A stretch of DNA of 64,000 nucleotides from Muricea muricata. Taxonomy: Eukaryota; Cnidaria; Anthozoa; Malacalcyonacea; Plexauridae. The first letter of the stretch is position 1. Every line of letters starts with the position of its first letter. The notes beneath the pieces are model-generated. The model did not search any database, was not told the DNA's origin, and was given only the letters and a program-made list of their open reading frames with translations. The DNA lies in the NCBI GenBank assembly GCA_963855995.1, contig OY979724.1, positions 12,756,032 to 12,820,031 on the forward strand, read 5' to 3'. The translations under genes and the position numbers were made by a program. Below, one piece after another: positions 1,638-39,500 of the stretch.

Positions 1638-4600
1638 TTAGACTTGTACGTCTCTGAATGCCAGAGATACAAGCGCCTTCTGATGTCCTTGATATTTGCG
1701 AACGACTTCCTCCTGCTCTAAACTCCACAGGCGAGCTATGTTGTCTGACGACACTGCAAAATAATTGCAAAGAAAGATGGCAAAAAATTAGTCTTCAATT
1801 CTTCAATGTGTCGATTCTCCAACTTGCATGTAAAAAGCATTTTCCTACGTACAAAAAAAACACTAAAATGTTTAAGTACGAATAATCTCACGTGAAACGC
1901 TTACTACCAGCCCATATACATCTGAGAGAATACTGCTAAATTTTAAAACACAAATGTTTGCTAGAATAGATTTAGAAGCATTTTCATACTTCCAAGTCCA
2001 ACTTCAAAATGCTCGAGTAGATGCTTTCTACCCACTTGTGGAAAGCGATTCACGCTTAGAACAATTCCATACCCGCCTGTAAATCTTACAAAATACTTCA
2101 TAAAACGTTTGCTACTTCAACTTCTTTCAACTTTCCACTCCGCTTGTATACTGTACCTGCTACGAGGTATTGCGAGTCTTCGGAGAAAGCACAATCCCAC
2201 ACCCAGCGCTGAGATGACTCTTTTAATGTTGACTTTAAAGTAAAATCACTAGTTTGCCATATCTTTATGCTTTGGTCTGCCGATGTAGTTGCCAATAAGC
2301 TGAAAAAATTGCATTGCTTATAGATCGTACACTTTGATTTCAGACGTAAATAATCTGTACTCATGTATAATAAACATGCCATTGTCTTACCACGAGTCGG
2401 GGCTAAAGAGGCATTTTAAGCCAGCTTTCTCGTGTGCTTTCATCAATTTTGTCCTGGGTCTTAAAGTTGTTGGAGCCGTTGAGGTACCTGATGACAAACT
2501 CCAAATATAGAAGTTTCCCTGTGGTATGTAATACAGAAAAGGGAAATATCAATGAATTGCCTCAGGCATGTGCATGTATTTCAGAACACAAAGAACTTAT
2601 GAGGTTACTCAACCTGGTTATTAATGGCTGCCATATAAGTTGCATCTTCGTTGATACTTAATGATAATATTGCTGCATCTGCTTCAGGAATCTGTAATTT
2701 TCAAGTAATATTTGATGCATTGGTAGTGCAATTATCAGAGTGGTAATCACAATTTGAGGAGAAAAATTGCAAGGGATTTTACTCTTAAGTAATCATAGAC
2801 AATGGTCATCTCACATGTCCATAACATATAAGAACCAAACTTGAAGTGGCTGCCTATGAATTCAGACTGATGCATCTGTAGCAATTGAGCTTTATTCTTT
2901 GTTGCAATTCCAGGTGATTATGACATCCTTACCAACTTCTCACTTCTGTCTGTTCTCAAATCCCAGATGTGTATTGCACCACTATGGTCGCCAACAAGGA
3001 GTTCACTCTGGAAAACAAATTGTCTTGGCATGATGGTAATGTAGCGTGATTAAAAACTAAAGTAGTGAACACGTTACGATGATATATTGCTTTACATGGC
3101 AAAAAACCCGAGATCCTATTGAAAACAGAATGCAATTATGTTGGGGCAACATTGCTCCTGGTTGTCAACAATAATGTTCAGTATTTGCACTTGACTGCGG
3201 CCTTATTCAGGCTCAACAATACTGTTAAATATTGTTGATAACCAGAAAAATGTATATATCCTTAACAGCATTGTTGCATCCTGTTTTCAAAATTTTTCTA
3301 TGTTGCTAAGCAGATAAATGCTAAGTACATCCATAGTAAGACATTTGTTCAAAGGGTTGCAAATGGTGTCGTACTTGGTTTGGGTGAAGAATGACACAGT
3401 TCACGGGTGCTTTTAATTGAAAAACACGCTGGCACTGCAAGTTTCTCGACCGAAGATCCCAGATCCTTGCCGAGCAATCCTCTCCACCCGTGTACATCCA
3501 TTTCCCATCCTCGTTAAAGCCCACTGCTGTTGCATTCTTTGATATGCCATCATAATTTACAATCTTGAATAAAATAATTTCAAAATTTATGTGCTTGTTC
3601 TGTGTGCTTGCCAATTGCATGAAGTTGTATCTAGTGGAATAGGGGGTGCTAAGGCAAGGGGGGATAGGTGGTACTAGGGAATGAGGGTGGGGGATAGGTG
3701 GTACTAATGTAAGGTGAGGGGGATAGGAGATACTAAGGTAAGGGGAGGGGGATAGGAGATACTAAGGTAAGGGGAGGGGGAAAGAATTCTAGGGGTAAGG
3801 GTACTAAGGTAAGGAATGAGGGAAGGGGATACTAAGGTAGGGGGGGGGGGTTAGGAACCTGAGCCCCCCTAGCCTGCAAATAATAGTACATAAACTTTTT
3901 AAATATCACTTACAGCATTTGCATTGTTCGATTTGATGTCATACATTTTAATGTGTTGATATCCTGTACAAGACAAAAGATATTTAATAAATTTACAGGA
4001 GAAGCAAGAGGGTACAAAATACAACAGAAATCAGATCCATTGTACCTGCTGCAGCCAAAAGATGTTTGTCTGGTGTGATTGCCATATCGTTAACCTGGTG
4101 AGTTTCTGTTAAGGTATAAATGTCACTAATACACTTAATGTAGACAGATGCAACTCCTGCTTGCATTGAACCACCCACTGTCATTGACTTGGGCACAGGT
4201 TAGGCAAGAACGAGCAAAAGTCGAGGACACAAAATCCTATGAAGTTACACATCTGTTCTTACCCAATCTGTGACTTGGGTCCAGGGCAGACAAAAGCAAA
4301 TGGCAGTGAGTTATTCACACTTCACCAATCTGCTCTTGTCAACTTTGAGTTGGTTCAAATCATGGGAGTTTTTCCCCATAACCAACCCACAAAGGAAATT
4401 TCTGCCATCCAGGGGGGGGGCAGTCTGAAGAATGTCTTAAATTTGTATACCACGTCTAGAAAGAGGGTATTGCTAATTTCCTCCGTGGGGAAGGAATTTT
4501 TTCTGGAACAACCCATTTTGGCAATCATAAGAGTTGTATGCCGTATCAGAGTTTAATGTAGGTTTTATTATAAGAAGTATACCAGTCAGGATTTCTTGTA

Positions 4601-4867
4601 GTTTTAGTGATGTCACAGATTTGTTTTTAACCAACTCTTATCTTCCCCCATGCAAACTCTCGTCAACTGACCATACTTTTCCTGGAACATCACTAAACGC
4701 GCAAGCATTGAGAACATACGTATCAAAAAGGACTAAAAGGATATGGATTCAGTATGCGGTACAGTCCGATGACATACGCCATTGTGAGCTTGCCAAAACC
4801 TAATACTGTGATCGTATCCTGCTGTAGCTAGTATAACCTGATCACCAGTGTCGTCACGACCACTCAT
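1638..4867 (-). CDS. MLST8: mLST8 (GbetaL), WD40 subunit of TORC1 and TORC2
   Basis: Nine coding exons on the minus strand, in reading order: 4867-4745, 4097-4046, 3963-3914, 3563-3375, 3007-2933, 2691-2614, 2518-2391, 2299-2157, 1753-1638. They sum to 954 nt, giving 317 residues plus TAA; the phase closes at every junction, and human mLST8 is 326 residues. The product is a seven-bladed WD40 propeller that binds and stabilises the mTOR kinase domain. Diagnostic segments include [51 protein letters not shown] and SSDNIARLW. The start MSGRDD (4867) sits where the human N-terminus does; an in-frame ATG further upstream would add residues not seen in the family. The first intron is AT-AC U12-type (own entry). 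The 3' end faces ATF7IP, and XPO6 lies upstream on the same strand. Confidence 0.96.
3121..3288. repeat. Foldback element, CAACAATGTTG family, in mLST8 intron
   Basis: The ends are inverted: GAAAACAG(A)ATGCAA at left and TTGCATCCTGTTTTC at right, with inner segments rich in CAACAAT/ATTGTTG and GGTTGTCAACAA/TTGTTGATAACC. It resembles the elements at 55004-55176 and 59864-60069. Confidence 0.6.
3636..3860. repeat. Purine-rich minisatellite in mLST8 intron
   Basis: Degenerate tandem units of roughly 25-40 bp built from GGGGATAGG, GATACTAAGG and TAAGGGGAGG on the plus strand, ending in a G-run near 3840. It lies inside the intron between the third and fourth coding exons. No other function is visible. 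Confidence 0.75.
4098..4744 (-). other. AT-AC (U12-type) intron, first coding intron of mLST8
   Basis: Exon 1 ends with the codons for HTES, and exon 2 opens with QVNDMA, matching the human HQDSQVN segment. The sequence between begins ATATCCTTTT (4744 downward) and ends CTCAC (4098). A branch-point match TACCTTAAC lies at 4116-4108, with the branch adenosine about 11 nt from the 3' end. All three signals match the U12 AT-AC consensus (ATATCCTT, TTCCTTAAC, YAC). No GT-AG pair joins the two conserved coding blocks in frame. Confidence 0.88.
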
Positions 4868-5370: not shown

Positions 5371-8300
5371 TTAAAATGTTACAGTTCCCGATGGTAGACT
5401 GCTATTGTACAATCTGTAATATCGAACATCGCTCACAAAACGATGCACTCCACGAGTGAATGATGGTAAATCCTAAAATATAGAAAGAGATGTTAATTTT
5501 ACACCATCACATCACACTACACCACCACATCACACTACATAACCACACATCATATTACACCATATATCACACTACACCACCACATCATACTACAACACCA
5601 CCTCACACTAACACCAGCATATCACAATACACCCCCACATCACACTACAGCACCACATCACACTACATCACGTCACACTACACCACCACATCACACTACA
5701 CCACCACATCACACTACACAACATCAACAAACCACATCACATCACATCAGAACATACCACACTACATATAGCACACCACACCACATTAAACCACATCACA
5801 ACACCATACATCGCATCATACTGCAACACAACCCACCTTATCCATTTTAAACGACTTCGACAATTCTGCTTTTTGCTCAGCATAAAGACCCTCGCAGCCT
5901 GTCAAGAACTCGGGCAGAAACCGCCGGTAGAATTTATCAAAATCCGCAGAAGCCATGTTGTACAGCGCAATGGCGATCTCCTCTTGCAGCAAGTCATGAG
6001 AACGGCGAACTAAGACTTGCAGCAGGACGTTTAAGAAATGAAACAGCATACCATCACTGAAGATTGGCTAATGAAAAATAAAAAACGTAAGATTTGGAAT
6101 ATATTTTAGCCTAAATGTCTTTTTAACGTTTATCTTCCACCAATCTTAGCACAATTCAGAACCATCCTCAGCGATATGAAAAACCAGATTCATATTACTA
6201 TGAATCTAATCTCAGCACAATTCTAGTTAATCTGCTGGTCTGCTTGCATAGAAAGGTCATTTAGATACCTTTTGGTAGAGCTTTCGTTTGGAGTTCAAGT
6301 CTTCCAGACTCTGCAGGTTTTGTTTGAAGACAGTTATATCTGTTTGTGTAAACGTTTGTCCAAAAGCCTGCAAAAAGAAACACACACAACAGGATCAGAA
6401 AGAAACTTTTTAGACTTGTCAAGGTTACTACAAAAGGAAACCCTACACTAAACTAACCATATTTATACTGGATAGCTCTATCAGTTCTATACTATTCTTC
6501 CTAGAGGTCCAGTACGGATCATCTATTATTGATCTAGTGTTACTACAAAAGGAAACCCTACACTAAACTAACCATATTTATACTGGATAGCTCTATCAGT
6601 TCTAAACTGTTCTTCCTAGAGGTCCAGTAAGGATCATCTATTATTGATTCAGTGTTACTACAGGAGGAAACCAAAACTAAACTAACTTTATTTATACTGG
6701 ATAGCTCTATCAGTTCTAAACTGTTCTTCCTAGAGGTCCAGTAAGGATCATCTCTTATTGATTCAGTGTTACTACAGGAAGAAACCTAAACTAAACTAAC
6801 TTTATTTATACTGGATAGCTCTATCAGTTCTAAACTGTTCTTCCTAGAGGTCCAGTAAGGATCATCTCTTATTGATCTAGTGTTACTACAGAAGGAAACC
6901 TAAACTAAACTAACTTTATTTATACTGGATAGCTCTATCAGTTCTAAACTGTTTTTCCTAGAGATCCAGCAAGGATTATTGATCCAGTGTTACTACAGAA
7001 GGAAACCTACACTAAACTAACTTTATTTGTAATGGATACAGTAGCTCGGTCAGTTCTTCTGAACTGTTCTTCCTAGAGGTTCAGTAAGGATCCTCTCTTA
7101 TTGATCCAAAGTTACTACAACAGGAAACCTAAACTAAACTAACTTTCTATACACTGGATATCTCTATCGTTTCCCATCAGTCTCTTACAAACCTCCATCA
7201 TTTTGACAAACTGTCCTTGGTTTTCGCAGGCGCCATCATCGCCATGCGTTACGCGAGTTTGAACATTTGGACGGAAGAAATATCGCCAGTTGTTCAAGAG
7301 AAGTTGATAAAGCAGTTCAAAGAATTCCGTCTTGATGTCTGGAGCAGAACGCTGCAAAATTGAAAAAGGAGGTTAGAAATATTTCACATATTAGCGAAGA
7401 GGAAAACTAAACTAACCTTACGGTAAATAACCTTATTCTTCCGAGAGGTCCAGTAAGGATCTTCTCTTATTGATCTCCAGTGTTAATACAGGAGAAATCC
7501 TAAACTAAACTGACTTTATACTGGATAGCTCTAACATTTTTAAACTGTTCTCCTTAGATGCCTTATAAGTTTTTTTTTCTTGCTGCTCCAGTCGTACTAG
7601 AAGGAAATCCTTTAGGACGGTTGAATAGCGCTATCCACAGGATAGTGACTTTCTCAAACATTCTAAACATGTTCAGTAACTGGTAAAACCCATATTAAGA
7701 TTCTAATTTTTGAGTCAGTCGCTTTCTTTTCAATATTCCTGGTGTCATTGCTTTTTATGCCCACCATCCGGTGTATAGCGTACAATCGTCCTACGGTGTC
7801 AGGTAGAGTCAAGTCATATACAAGCAAGCAACTGAGACAAAATTTGAATTCCAAAGAGGAAAGGCTGCAAAATGAACCTCTGCTATGAGCGGGTGAATTT
7901 GATCCAAACAAAAGTTAATAATATTTGGCAACAACGTCTTGAAGGAAGATCCAGTCTGTTGAGCTAAAAGTCTTAAAATTCGTAGAAACTTTTCGAGAAC
8001 GCGCGAGCCTGCTGACATCTCTTGAGATATGGTTTCCTGGAGTTGCTCCCTGGTGAACATGCCCAACAGTCTGTGTATGATCTGTTCCGTGTACGCAACA
8101 CCCAGTTGTAGTTGGAATGCCCCGAAGACCGCGAGAAGAAATCCAAGTATAGAATCGACCACATCTAGAAGATAAACAACCGACAGATTTCGGTTAGCCT
8201 TTCTTCAATTTCAACCTCGTACACTTGATGCAAGTTGTGGATTTTTTTTACCGATTTGATGTCATTAAGTTGCATTTAAGCATGCTGTCTTCACTTGATG

Positions 8301-16956: not shown

Positions 16957-28664
<11,708 letters not shown>

Positions 28665-36500: not shown

Positions 36501-39500
36501 GAATATCAACTTTCAGGTACTTTACAGAGAGGGAATAAGCGCATTATGTCCGGAAGGTACAGGCTGGGTGACTGTGAGCCTTCCAGAAGACGTTCAAGCT
36601 GGGCAGATCTCGGTCGGACCAACCGGGATGGTCTGGGTAATAACCTGGCAACGAAATCTGTATCTTAGGACAGGAATCTCGAAATTTCAACCAACAGGTA
36701 GAAAAAATTAATAAAAATTGCTAGGTGCGCAACCAGGATTCATTCTGAAAACGTTCTCTGATCGTGAAATTTATTTTAACACGAGCTTTCGACTGCCAGT
36801 CTGAAGTCTTTGGCAGGTAAAGTAATGCTAAATATAAAACTATTCTACGACTATGGATTAGTATTACTTTAGAAAAAAATTGTTAAGATATTGCGCACAT
36901 TGTAGGTCCCAATCGCATCAAATTAAGCCAGGTTTACGTGATGAAATAACCACAAGGATAAAGCAGAAAACACAAATGAATAAAGTCAATTGTGTAGTAA
37001 TTCTAATTGAAACACAGAGCTATATTAAATAGTCTCGAAAGATTCTGTGCTAGGGAGCATCAAAATATCGAGACTGTATGAGAAGAAGTGATATAATTCT
37101 TTTCTAATAGGGTTATCGTGGACTTCAGTTCCGTTTCTACCGGATGTTGATGAACGAGTCTACCAACTGTCCGTTGGAATAAATGCTCTATGGCTGCTGA
37201 CAATGGACGGAAAAGTATGAGAACTCACTGCGAGTTTTTGAAATTGTTTAAAAATGTTGAAAATTGGTTGTAGGAAGGTATAAAAAGCAATCACACCAGG
37301 GGTATTGAGCTTGCAAAAGATAAAAACTGACTATAACTCGAAAATGCTGAGCTTTAATATGGGTTCTACCAGTTGCTGGACATGTTCAGAACGTTTGGAG
37401 AAAAATCACAGTCGCGTGGATAGTGTTATTCGATCACCTTTCGTAAAACCGAGCCCACGGTATATTTCTTCGTGTTTCTTCTTATTGACTTCATGCATTT
37501 GTGTTTTTTAGGTATATTTCAGACGAGGTATTTCATCATCCATTGGTTATACAGATGAACAGAACGCAAAAGGAACCAAATGGGTGGAAATGGTGGGCAG
37601 TTTCTCGTTACTCGCCATGGCTTTGAATGACCAGGTACAGTAATATGAAGACGCTTTTTGGCGTATAATTAGATTTCAGAACCATCCTCAGAGACATGAA
37701 AAACTAGATTCATATTAATCTGACACTGCAGAGAACAACGAAAAATCCGTTGTCTCTAGCAGGATTTGAACTCGCATCTTCGGGTTTCTAGACCGCCGCT
37801 CTACCAATTGAGCTATCGAGTCAACTGGGATTGGTAACGAGTCTTATCCAATTTAAGTGCACGAAACATTTTCGTGGCGACTGAACGCTTGTCTTTGAGG
37901 ATGCGCAGTGTTTCAATTTTATTTCAGAACCATCGAGACAACGAATTTTTCGTTGTTCTCTGCAGTGTTAGATTAATATGAATCTAGTTGGGTTTTTTTG
38001 AAATAATTGGATTAATGGTGTTTGTGGTGTTACCCTGAGACCTCAGTTGTTTAAAAGCTGGTTAGCTTAAAGGTTCAAACATGACGATTTCAAAAGTGTT
38101 CGATTTAAAAGTGAAACGTCACGTTTCAAACGTGAACAAACGCGTGAAATAGTTCATGCATCATGCTTGAACATAAATGGCAGTAAAGATAGAAATCTTG
38201 TCCGGATCAATAGCAGTTTTGGTTTTTTTGGAAACTGTTCCTTGATAAACAAAGGGAAACTACGACTTCCAGAATGCTAACTGTAGCTGCGCGTGTTTGA
38301 GTGTGTTATATTTCGCTACGTTAGTTCCTTTGTTATCAATGCAATACTTCTGAAATCATAAATGATTGTAACGATCGGTATAGGTCAATCAGAGACCGGT
38401 TGTATAAAACTCTGAATCTCTTTTTTAATCACTGTGTTGTAGTTAAATATTGATTAAGTGCAAAATACGTTGTTCTAATTGGTTGAAGTTTCCACTGGTC
38501 ATAGTTTTTTATCACTTTTTTATACAAACCGCCCCAGGTTGTCATAAGGCGTCGTCATTTTATTGTAATATACATTCAGGTGTTTGCTTTGAGCACTGGG
38601 TCAGACCATGTCTACTTTCGCTCTGATGTCACTTCCACTGAACTATCTGGCAAGGAATGGAAAAACCTAAACATTGGCCATTCAGTCATGGACAGTACGA
38701 GCAGTCTGTCCAGCGATTCATCACATCACGAATCCGAGGGACCTAGAGGTAAAACTAACTTTATTTATACTGGATAGCTCTATCAGTTCTAAACTGTTCT
38801 TCCTGGAGGTCCAGTAAGGATCATCTCTTATTGATCCAGTGTTACTACAGGAGGAAACGTAAACTAAGTTAACTTTATTTATACTGGATAGCTCTGTCAG
38901 TTCTAAACTGTTCTTCCTGGAGGTCCAGTAAGGATCATCTCTTATTGATCCAGTGTTACTACAGGAGGAAACCTAAACTAAGTTAAATTTATTTATACTG
39001 GATAGCTCTGTCAGTTCTAAACTGTTCTTCCTAGAGGCCCAGTAAGGATCACCTCTTATTGATCCAGTGTTACTACAGGAAGAAACCTAAACTAAACCAA
39101 CTTTATTTATACTCGATAGCTATATCAGTTCTAAACTGTTTCTCCTGTTTTGAAGGTGAAGATGGCACTCTATTCTCTGAACAACTTTCTAGTATGACAG
39201 ACAGTACTACGGAAAAACACCATTGGAACTGGATAAGCTGTGGCGCTTGTGATGTAATGGCAGATTTCTTCAGCTCGCGAAGTCATTTCCAGCGTGTCTC
39301 GTCCTTTAGCTCCATTAGTTTTAGTCCAAATAGATTAAATCTTGGTGACGGCCCATGGAGGGGAACTGTGCTCGACTTGCTACAGTCACGTGATAATAAT
39401 GAATTGATGCCTTACTGTGATTATGAACAGGCTGTGGATAAGGTTAGCGGATAAGGATGAGGGGAAAATCTTTGAGTGATAACAGCTGTGGGTGGAAGAT

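What the first reader, a model, noticed from the sequence alone, without database searches (positions are those of the whole stretch)
4098..4744. AT-AC minor-spliceosome intron in mLST8
The only way to join the conserved blocks HTES and QVNDMA is an intron with ATATCCTTTT at its 5' end, TACCTTAAC about 11 nt from its 3' end, and AC as the terminal dinucleotide. That is the full U12 AT-AC signature. A tempting GTATGT inside exon 1 would drop conserved residues. This makes a core TOR-pathway subunit dependent on the minor spliceosome in this animal, and implies a U11/U12/U4atac/U6atac machinery.
Basis: partly seen in the sequence, partly recalled or inferred. Interest (0 to 1): 0.7.

Follow-up and report, generated by a model that had tools for sequence, protein, structure and literature searches.

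The report
U12-type intron in TOR subunit mLST8
The mLST8 gene of this animal is interrupted by a rare type of intron that needs the cell's second, minor splicing machine; this is real but expected, since the mouse gene is already known to have one, while the animal's U6atac RNA, a part of that machine, shows an unexpected change.

Summary
Confirmed. mLST8 lies on the minus strand in nine coding exons (317 aa, 4867-1638). Introns 2-8 are GT-AG; intron 1 (4744-4098, 647 nt, phase 0) starts ATATCCTTTT, carries TACCTTAAC and ends AGAAACTCAC. Of 113 in-frame single-intron joins listed, it aligns best with human mLST8. U12, U4atac, U6atac and U11 genes are in the same assembly. Mouse Mlst8 is already a named minor-intron gene (PMC8034651, passages), so this is a further case of a known kind.

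The unexpected item is in the machinery. The one intact-looking U6atac gene found has GCC where the Rfam consensus has AAG at nucleotides 12-14, in the element that pairs with the 5' splice site. No canonical copy was found, within the limits of the searches. The five minor introns read keep TCCT at +4 to +7, so they mismatch this U6atac at +6 and +7; they were, however, picked by a near-consensus motif, so changed sites would have been missed. No transcript data were available.

The parts
4745..4867 (-). mLST8 coding exon 1 (MSGRDDTG...VPHTES), ends in phase 0
   Evidence: phmmer alignment to mLST8
4098..4744 (-). intron 1, 647 nt, AT-AC, U12-type
4735..4744 (-). U12-type 5' splice site ATATCCTTTT
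4108..4116 (-). U12-type branch-site element TACCTTAAC (branch A inferred at 4109 or 4110)
4098..4099 (-). 3' terminal dinucleotide AC
4046..4097 (-). mLST8 coding exon 2 ([18 protein letters not shown])
1638..3963 (-). mLST8 coding exons 3-9 (3963-3914, 3563-3375, 3007-2933, 2691-2614, 2518-2391, 2299-2157, 1753-1638); introns 2-8 (intron 2 at 4045-3964 lies just outside this span) are GT-AG, 7 of 7

Best explanation
Intron 1 of mLST8 is an AT-AC intron of the U12 class, probably the ortholog of the minor intron known in mouse Mlst8. U11 recognises ATATCCTT, U12 recognises TACCTTAAC, U4atac/U6atac join, and the minor spliceosome joins codon S41 to Q42 in phase 0; introns 2-8 are removed by the major spliceosome. 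Shown here: sequence signals, spacing, protein continuity, and genes for all four minor snRNAs. Inferred: actual splicing, orthology of the exact position with vertebrates, and any effect on TOR signalling.
For: The 317-aa model matches mLST8 (phmmer E 5.3e-139, 465.6 bits, residues 8-314) with no gap at the exon 1/2 junction. Intron 1 is the only one of 8 introns that is not GT-AG. Best of 113 in-frame joins. In a window scan for U12-like pairs it is the only one of 22 listed pairs without a 5' splice-site mismatch (the scan stops at the first AC and prints its end as 4102). U12 at three loci, best 106.5 bits; U4atac 60.3 bits; U6atac 104.3 bits; U11 at two loci, best 96.4 bits. Four further U12-type GT-AG introns join conserved blocks in PHB2, NLK and a MAPK-like gene (two). 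Mouse Mlst8 minor intron: PMC8034651 passages.
Against: No RNA evidence. The branch element is TACCTTAAC, not TTCCTTAAC: the predicted U12 duplex has 5 pairs and -4.9 kcal/mol against 7 pairs and -7.4 for the consensus. U6atac lacks the canonical nucleotides 12-14: its best predicted duplex with ATATCCTTTT is -2.5 in a shifted register, against -6.8 for the consensus. Phase 0 is the less common phase of minor introns (about 22%, PMC10639083 passage). The exact intron position in vertebrate Mlst8 could not be read.
Confidence: 0.96

Rival explanations
1. A U2-type GT-AG intron, possibly with an unrecognised exon in the interval, joins the two blocks and the U12-like motifs are coincidence.
For: 18 in-frame GT-AG joins exist; only single introns were enumerated.
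Against: The best GT-AG join scores 172 against 195 and inserts 13 residues at a junction that aligns to mLST8 without a gap; its donor GTCCTTTTT is far from the U2 consensus. The joint chance of U12 signals at the fixed junction is about 4e-8.
Confidence: 0.02
2. A U12-type intron with the same 5' splice site but an AG 3' end at 4095 (AT-AG), losing Q42, used alone or alternatively.
For: CACCAG lies three bases downstream; it stays in frame and scores 179.
Against: It deletes a residue that mLST8 has at this place; AC is the usual partner of AT (recalled).
Confidence: 0.02

Closest known systems
Minor intron of mouse Mlst8 (PMC8034651, minigene reporter)
   Same: Same gene; a minor intron flanked by major introns in a four-exon, three-intron reporter.
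   Different: Exact position, phase and terminal dinucleotides of that intron were not visible in the passages; here the intron is AT-AC, phase 0, and the first coding intron.
AT-AC U12-type introns (PMC2831892 passage: ATATCCTT at +1 to +8, TCCTTAAC branch site, AC end)
   Same: 5' element 8 of 8, AC end, CCTTAAC.
   Different: The branch element reads ACCTTAAC, one base off TCCTTAAC.
Canonical U6atac snRNA (Rfam RF00619)
   Same: Full-length match to model positions 1-126, 104.3 bits; AGAGAAGGUUAGCA segment identical to consensus.
   Different: Nucleotides 12-14 are GCC instead of AAG, in the element that pairs with 5' splice site +6 to +8.

Membership tests
U12-type AT-AC intron | 5' splice site ATATCCTT | tested here: met
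   8 of 8 at 4744-4737, minus strand
U12-type AT-AC intron | branch-site element near TTCCTTAAC shortly before the 3' end (usual spacing about 10-15 nt, recalled) | tested here: met
   TACCTTAAC, branch A 11 nt from the end
U12-type AT-AC intron | AC terminal dinucleotide consistent with the reading frame | tested here: met
   top of 113 in-frame joins
U12-type AT-AC intron | U11, U12, U4atac and U6atac in the genome | tested here: met
   best locus of each above the Rfam cut-off
U12-type AT-AC intron | actual removal by the minor spliceosome | not testable with these tools
   no transcript data
mLST8 (LST8) ortholog | full-length similarity to LST8 and no second copy | tested here: met
   7 of 8 PDB sequences at E<=1e-60 are named LST8; a genome search with the first 163 residues gave 6 matches, 4 here and 2 elsewhere at 22 and 24% identity. 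Pfam gives WD40 and other propeller families; among the 25 of 46 shown none is LST8-specific
canonical U6atac | AAGGA at 12-16 complementary to UCCUU at +4 to +8 | tested here: not met
   GCCGA in L006
canonical U6atac | pairing with the genome's own U4atac | tested here: met
   uninterrupted predicted duplex, -22.4 kcal/mol, against -14.8 for the same U4atac with a typed human-type U6atac segment (fragments only)

The most novel reading that the evidence does not exclude
In this animal the minor spliceosome works with a U6atac whose 5'-splice-site pairing element has changed from AAGGA to GCCGA, while at least five minor introns, mLST8 included, keep TCCT at +4 to +7. The U6atac-5' splice site helix, which suppressor experiments in cultured cells show to matter at +5/+6, would be reduced in these introns to the pairs at +4 and +5, sometimes with one more at +8. 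5' splice site choice would then rest mainly on U11 and proteins. Whether other minor introns followed the change is open, since the five were found by a near-consensus motif.
Probability: 0.4. Interest if true: 0.75.

Novelty: new member of a known kind. Interest (0 to 1): 0.35.

Why it matters
The intron itself extends a known minor-intron gene of the TOR pathway to another animal and is a clean AT-AC example. If the U6atac change is real and functional, it would be a natural change in the pairing element without the matching change in at least some introns, and would let one test how much of the U6atac-5' splice site helix is really needed.

Tried and rejected
GT-AG readings, GTATGT in exon 1 included, were rejected on alignment score. 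The 21 other U12-like pairs of the window scan each carry a 5' splice-site mismatch and were not pursued.

A canonical U6atac copy was sought and not found. The family search scored 46 of 15,900 first-look candidates. Pattern TRTGANNNNAGAGAAGGTTAG with up to 1 mismatch gave 5 hits: 3 U6atac-like, all with GCC, and 2 others. Pattern AAAGGAGAGAAGGTTAGCA with up to 2 mismatches gave 12 hits, against 3 for the reversed control; 10 became loci, 8 of these were given to Rfam and none matched U6atac at E up to 0.1. L059 and L060, with the same matched letters as L058, and 2 hits without loci were not given. The one-mismatch hit L056 looks like a collagen-type exon end, by eye (5 of the 10 loci were looked at there). 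One search used a pattern with one base too many; its zero is not evidence.

Literature: nine paper searches were answered. No title or abstract start in the listings reported a changed U6atac pairing element, but several listings were partial (25 of 91, 15 of 32, 10 of 16, 12 of 92, 8 of 229), only passages of six papers were seen (PMC8034651, PMC10639083, PMC2831892, PMC2846911, PMC8199999, PMC4980772), and most subscription papers are not held.

Full report
The window holds mLST8 on the minus strand. I rebuilt the gene from open frames and splice sites: nine coding exons, 317 residues, eight introns. The product matches mLST8 (4jsn_D, human by recall) over residues 8-314 with E 5.3e-139; 7 of the 8 PDB sequences at E<=1e-60 are named LST8. 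A search of the whole assembly (453,007,491 bases, 74 contigs) with the first 163 residues gave 6 matches: 4 are exons of this locus, 2 are distant (22 and 24% identity). The short exon 2 gave no match of its own there. No retrocopy was seen that could serve as a spliced witness.

Introns 2-8 are GT-AG, 7 of 7. Intron 1 (4744-4098) is not: it starts ATATCCTTTT, ends AGAAACTCAC, and carries TACCTTAAC with the inferred branch A 11 nt from the end. It joins HTES to QVND in phase 0, and the joined protein aligns there with mLST8 without a gap. I listed in-frame single-intron joins, with donors from base 61 of exon 1 to 60 nt past it, introns of at least 30 nt and five terminal-dinucleotide classes: 113 joins, the claimed one best at 195. 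The nearest, 194, lacks the U12 5' splice site and has a branch distance of 7 nt; same-donor AT-AG scores 179; best GT-AG 172. Two-intron solutions with an extra exon were not enumerated. ATATCCTTT is expected 0.82 times per window by chance, so it is the position that carries the weight: at a junction fixed by homology the joint chance is about 4e-8 under a simple Markov model.

Rfam family searches of the whole assembly gave U12 at three loci (106.5, 106.5, 105.3 bits), U4atac at one locus above the cut-off and one just below (60.3, 52.5), U6atac at two loci (104.3, 35.3) and U11 at two (96.4, 95.7); these counts are lower bounds. No snRNA lies in the window itself (two tRNAs only). Upstream of L001/L002 (U12), L004 (U4atac), L006 (U6atac) and L008/L009 (U11) a related CCCACA or CCACAAT element lies 58-64 nt before the RNA start, by eye. 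Scored against the U4atac version it gives 12 of 12 for U4atac itself, 11 of 12 for U6atac at -64 and 8 of 12 for both U11 genes at -58; for U12 the best-scoring place was elsewhere (8 of 12 at -14), so the U12 case rests on eye alone. The element is not evident in L003, L005 and L007.

It is not a new kind of thing. PMC8034651 (passages only) names Mlst8 as a minor-intron-containing gene and used its minor intron with flanking major introns as a reporter in an siRNA screen of 55 factors. Minor introns in cnidarians and other animals are long known (PMC2846911 and PMC8199999 passages), and AT-AC introns make up about 26% of human minor introns (PMC10639083 passage). I could not read the exact position of the vertebrate intron, so orthology of the site is likely but not shown.

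The unexpected observation concerns U6atac. The Rfam consensus, and the human-type sequence implied by the U6atac morpholino in PMC8034651, read GUGUUGUAUGAAAGGAGAGAAGGUU; L006 reads GUGUUGUAUGAGCCGAGAGAAGGUU. The three changed bases, 12-14, lie in the element that pairs with the intron's +4 to +8. PMC4980772 (passages) reports that a CC5/6GG intron mutation is partly rescued by U6atac GG14/15CC and nearly fully when U11 GG6/7CC is added; G14 is one of the bases changed here. L006 is full length, ends in a run of five T, has the upstream element, and forms an uninterrupted predicted duplex with the genome's own U4atac (-22.4 kcal/mol), so it looks like a working gene. L007 and its near-duplicate L019 are decayed and carry GCC as well, which argues against a base-calling error in L006. 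Searches for a canonical copy found none, within the limits told under Tried and rejected.

I then looked at other minor introns. PHB2 and NLK were chosen from a table of conserved U12 introns in PMC2831892 (passage); the MAPK-like gene and three more kinase places came from the 107 matches of the NLK search, 5 places of which were fetched, NLK included. The 7 fetched loci were scanned as 6 stretches for [AG]TAT followed by at most one mismatch to CCTT, and for a loose branch motif. Three stretches gave four introns that join conserved protein blocks in frame: GTATCCTCTA (PHB2), GTATCCTATG (NLK), GTATCCTTTA and GTATCCTCTT (MAPK-like), with branch elements TTCCTTGAC, TTCCTTGAC, TTTCTTAAC and TTTCTTAAC. 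The other three stretches (L053-L055) gave none that I could join, judged by eye, and several motif hits in all stretches were left unexplained.

With mLST8 that makes five introns, all with TCCT at +4 to +7. This is partly by construction: the motif filter demands T at +4 and allows one mismatch at +5 to +8, so an intron whose site had followed the U6atac change would have been missed. What stands is that these five exist. Against them the genome's U6atac makes standard pairs at +4 and +5 and mismatches at +6 and +7 in 5 of 5; at +8 a Watson-Crick pair in 2, a wobble in 2, none in 1. A consensus U6atac would pair at all five positions in 2 of 5 and at four in 3 of 5. The predicted U11 duplex with the mLST8 site equals that of the human-like form (-5.4 in both).

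The conservative reading is that the mLST8 intron is an ordinary U12 intron and that a canonical U6atac is missing from the assembly or was missed. The bolder reading is a minor spliceosome running on a shortened U6atac-5' splice site helix. I cannot decide between them without RNA. 

Noticed in passing
L006 1501-1626 (G000:C5:9372768-9372893 +): U6atac gene with GCC in place of AAG at nucleotides 12-14, in the 5' splice site pairing element; no canonical copy found in the assembly.
   Followed up: partly
L007 1501-1621 and L019 (G000:C3:10097681 and about 10150342): Two similar decayed U6atac copies about 53 kb apart, both with GCCA; the upstream element is not evident in L007.
   Followed up: partly
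L052 index 1472 and L050 index 1613 (0-based): A MAPK-like gene and NLK have a U12-type GT-AG intron at what looks like the same protein position (DV|YIVQTL and EI|YIVTEL, phase 2), suggesting a minor intron older than the split of these kinases.
   Followed up: partly
L029 (G000:C5:7534500-7540000, minus strand): PHB2 has a U12-type intron of the GT-AG subtype here; the table in PMC2831892 (passage) lists the fly PHB2 intron, with a human U12 ortholog, as AT-AC, so a subtype switch is possible if the position is the same (not checked).
   Followed up: partly
L008 and L009 (G000:C9:1241849 and 1216451): Two near-identical U11 genes about 25 kb apart, on the same contig as the window.
   Followed up: no
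6424-7168: Tandem array, unit 114 bp, about 6.5 copies, 88% match, right of mLST8 exon 1.
   Followed up: no
3659-3781 and 5500-5719: Tandem arrays: a 29-bp unit (4.2 copies) inside mLST8 intron 3 and an 18-bp unit (12.3 copies) right of mLST8 exon 1.
   Followed up: no
23957-24028 (+) and 37751-37822 (-): Two tRNA matches in the window (47.6 and 45.8 bits).
   Followed up: no
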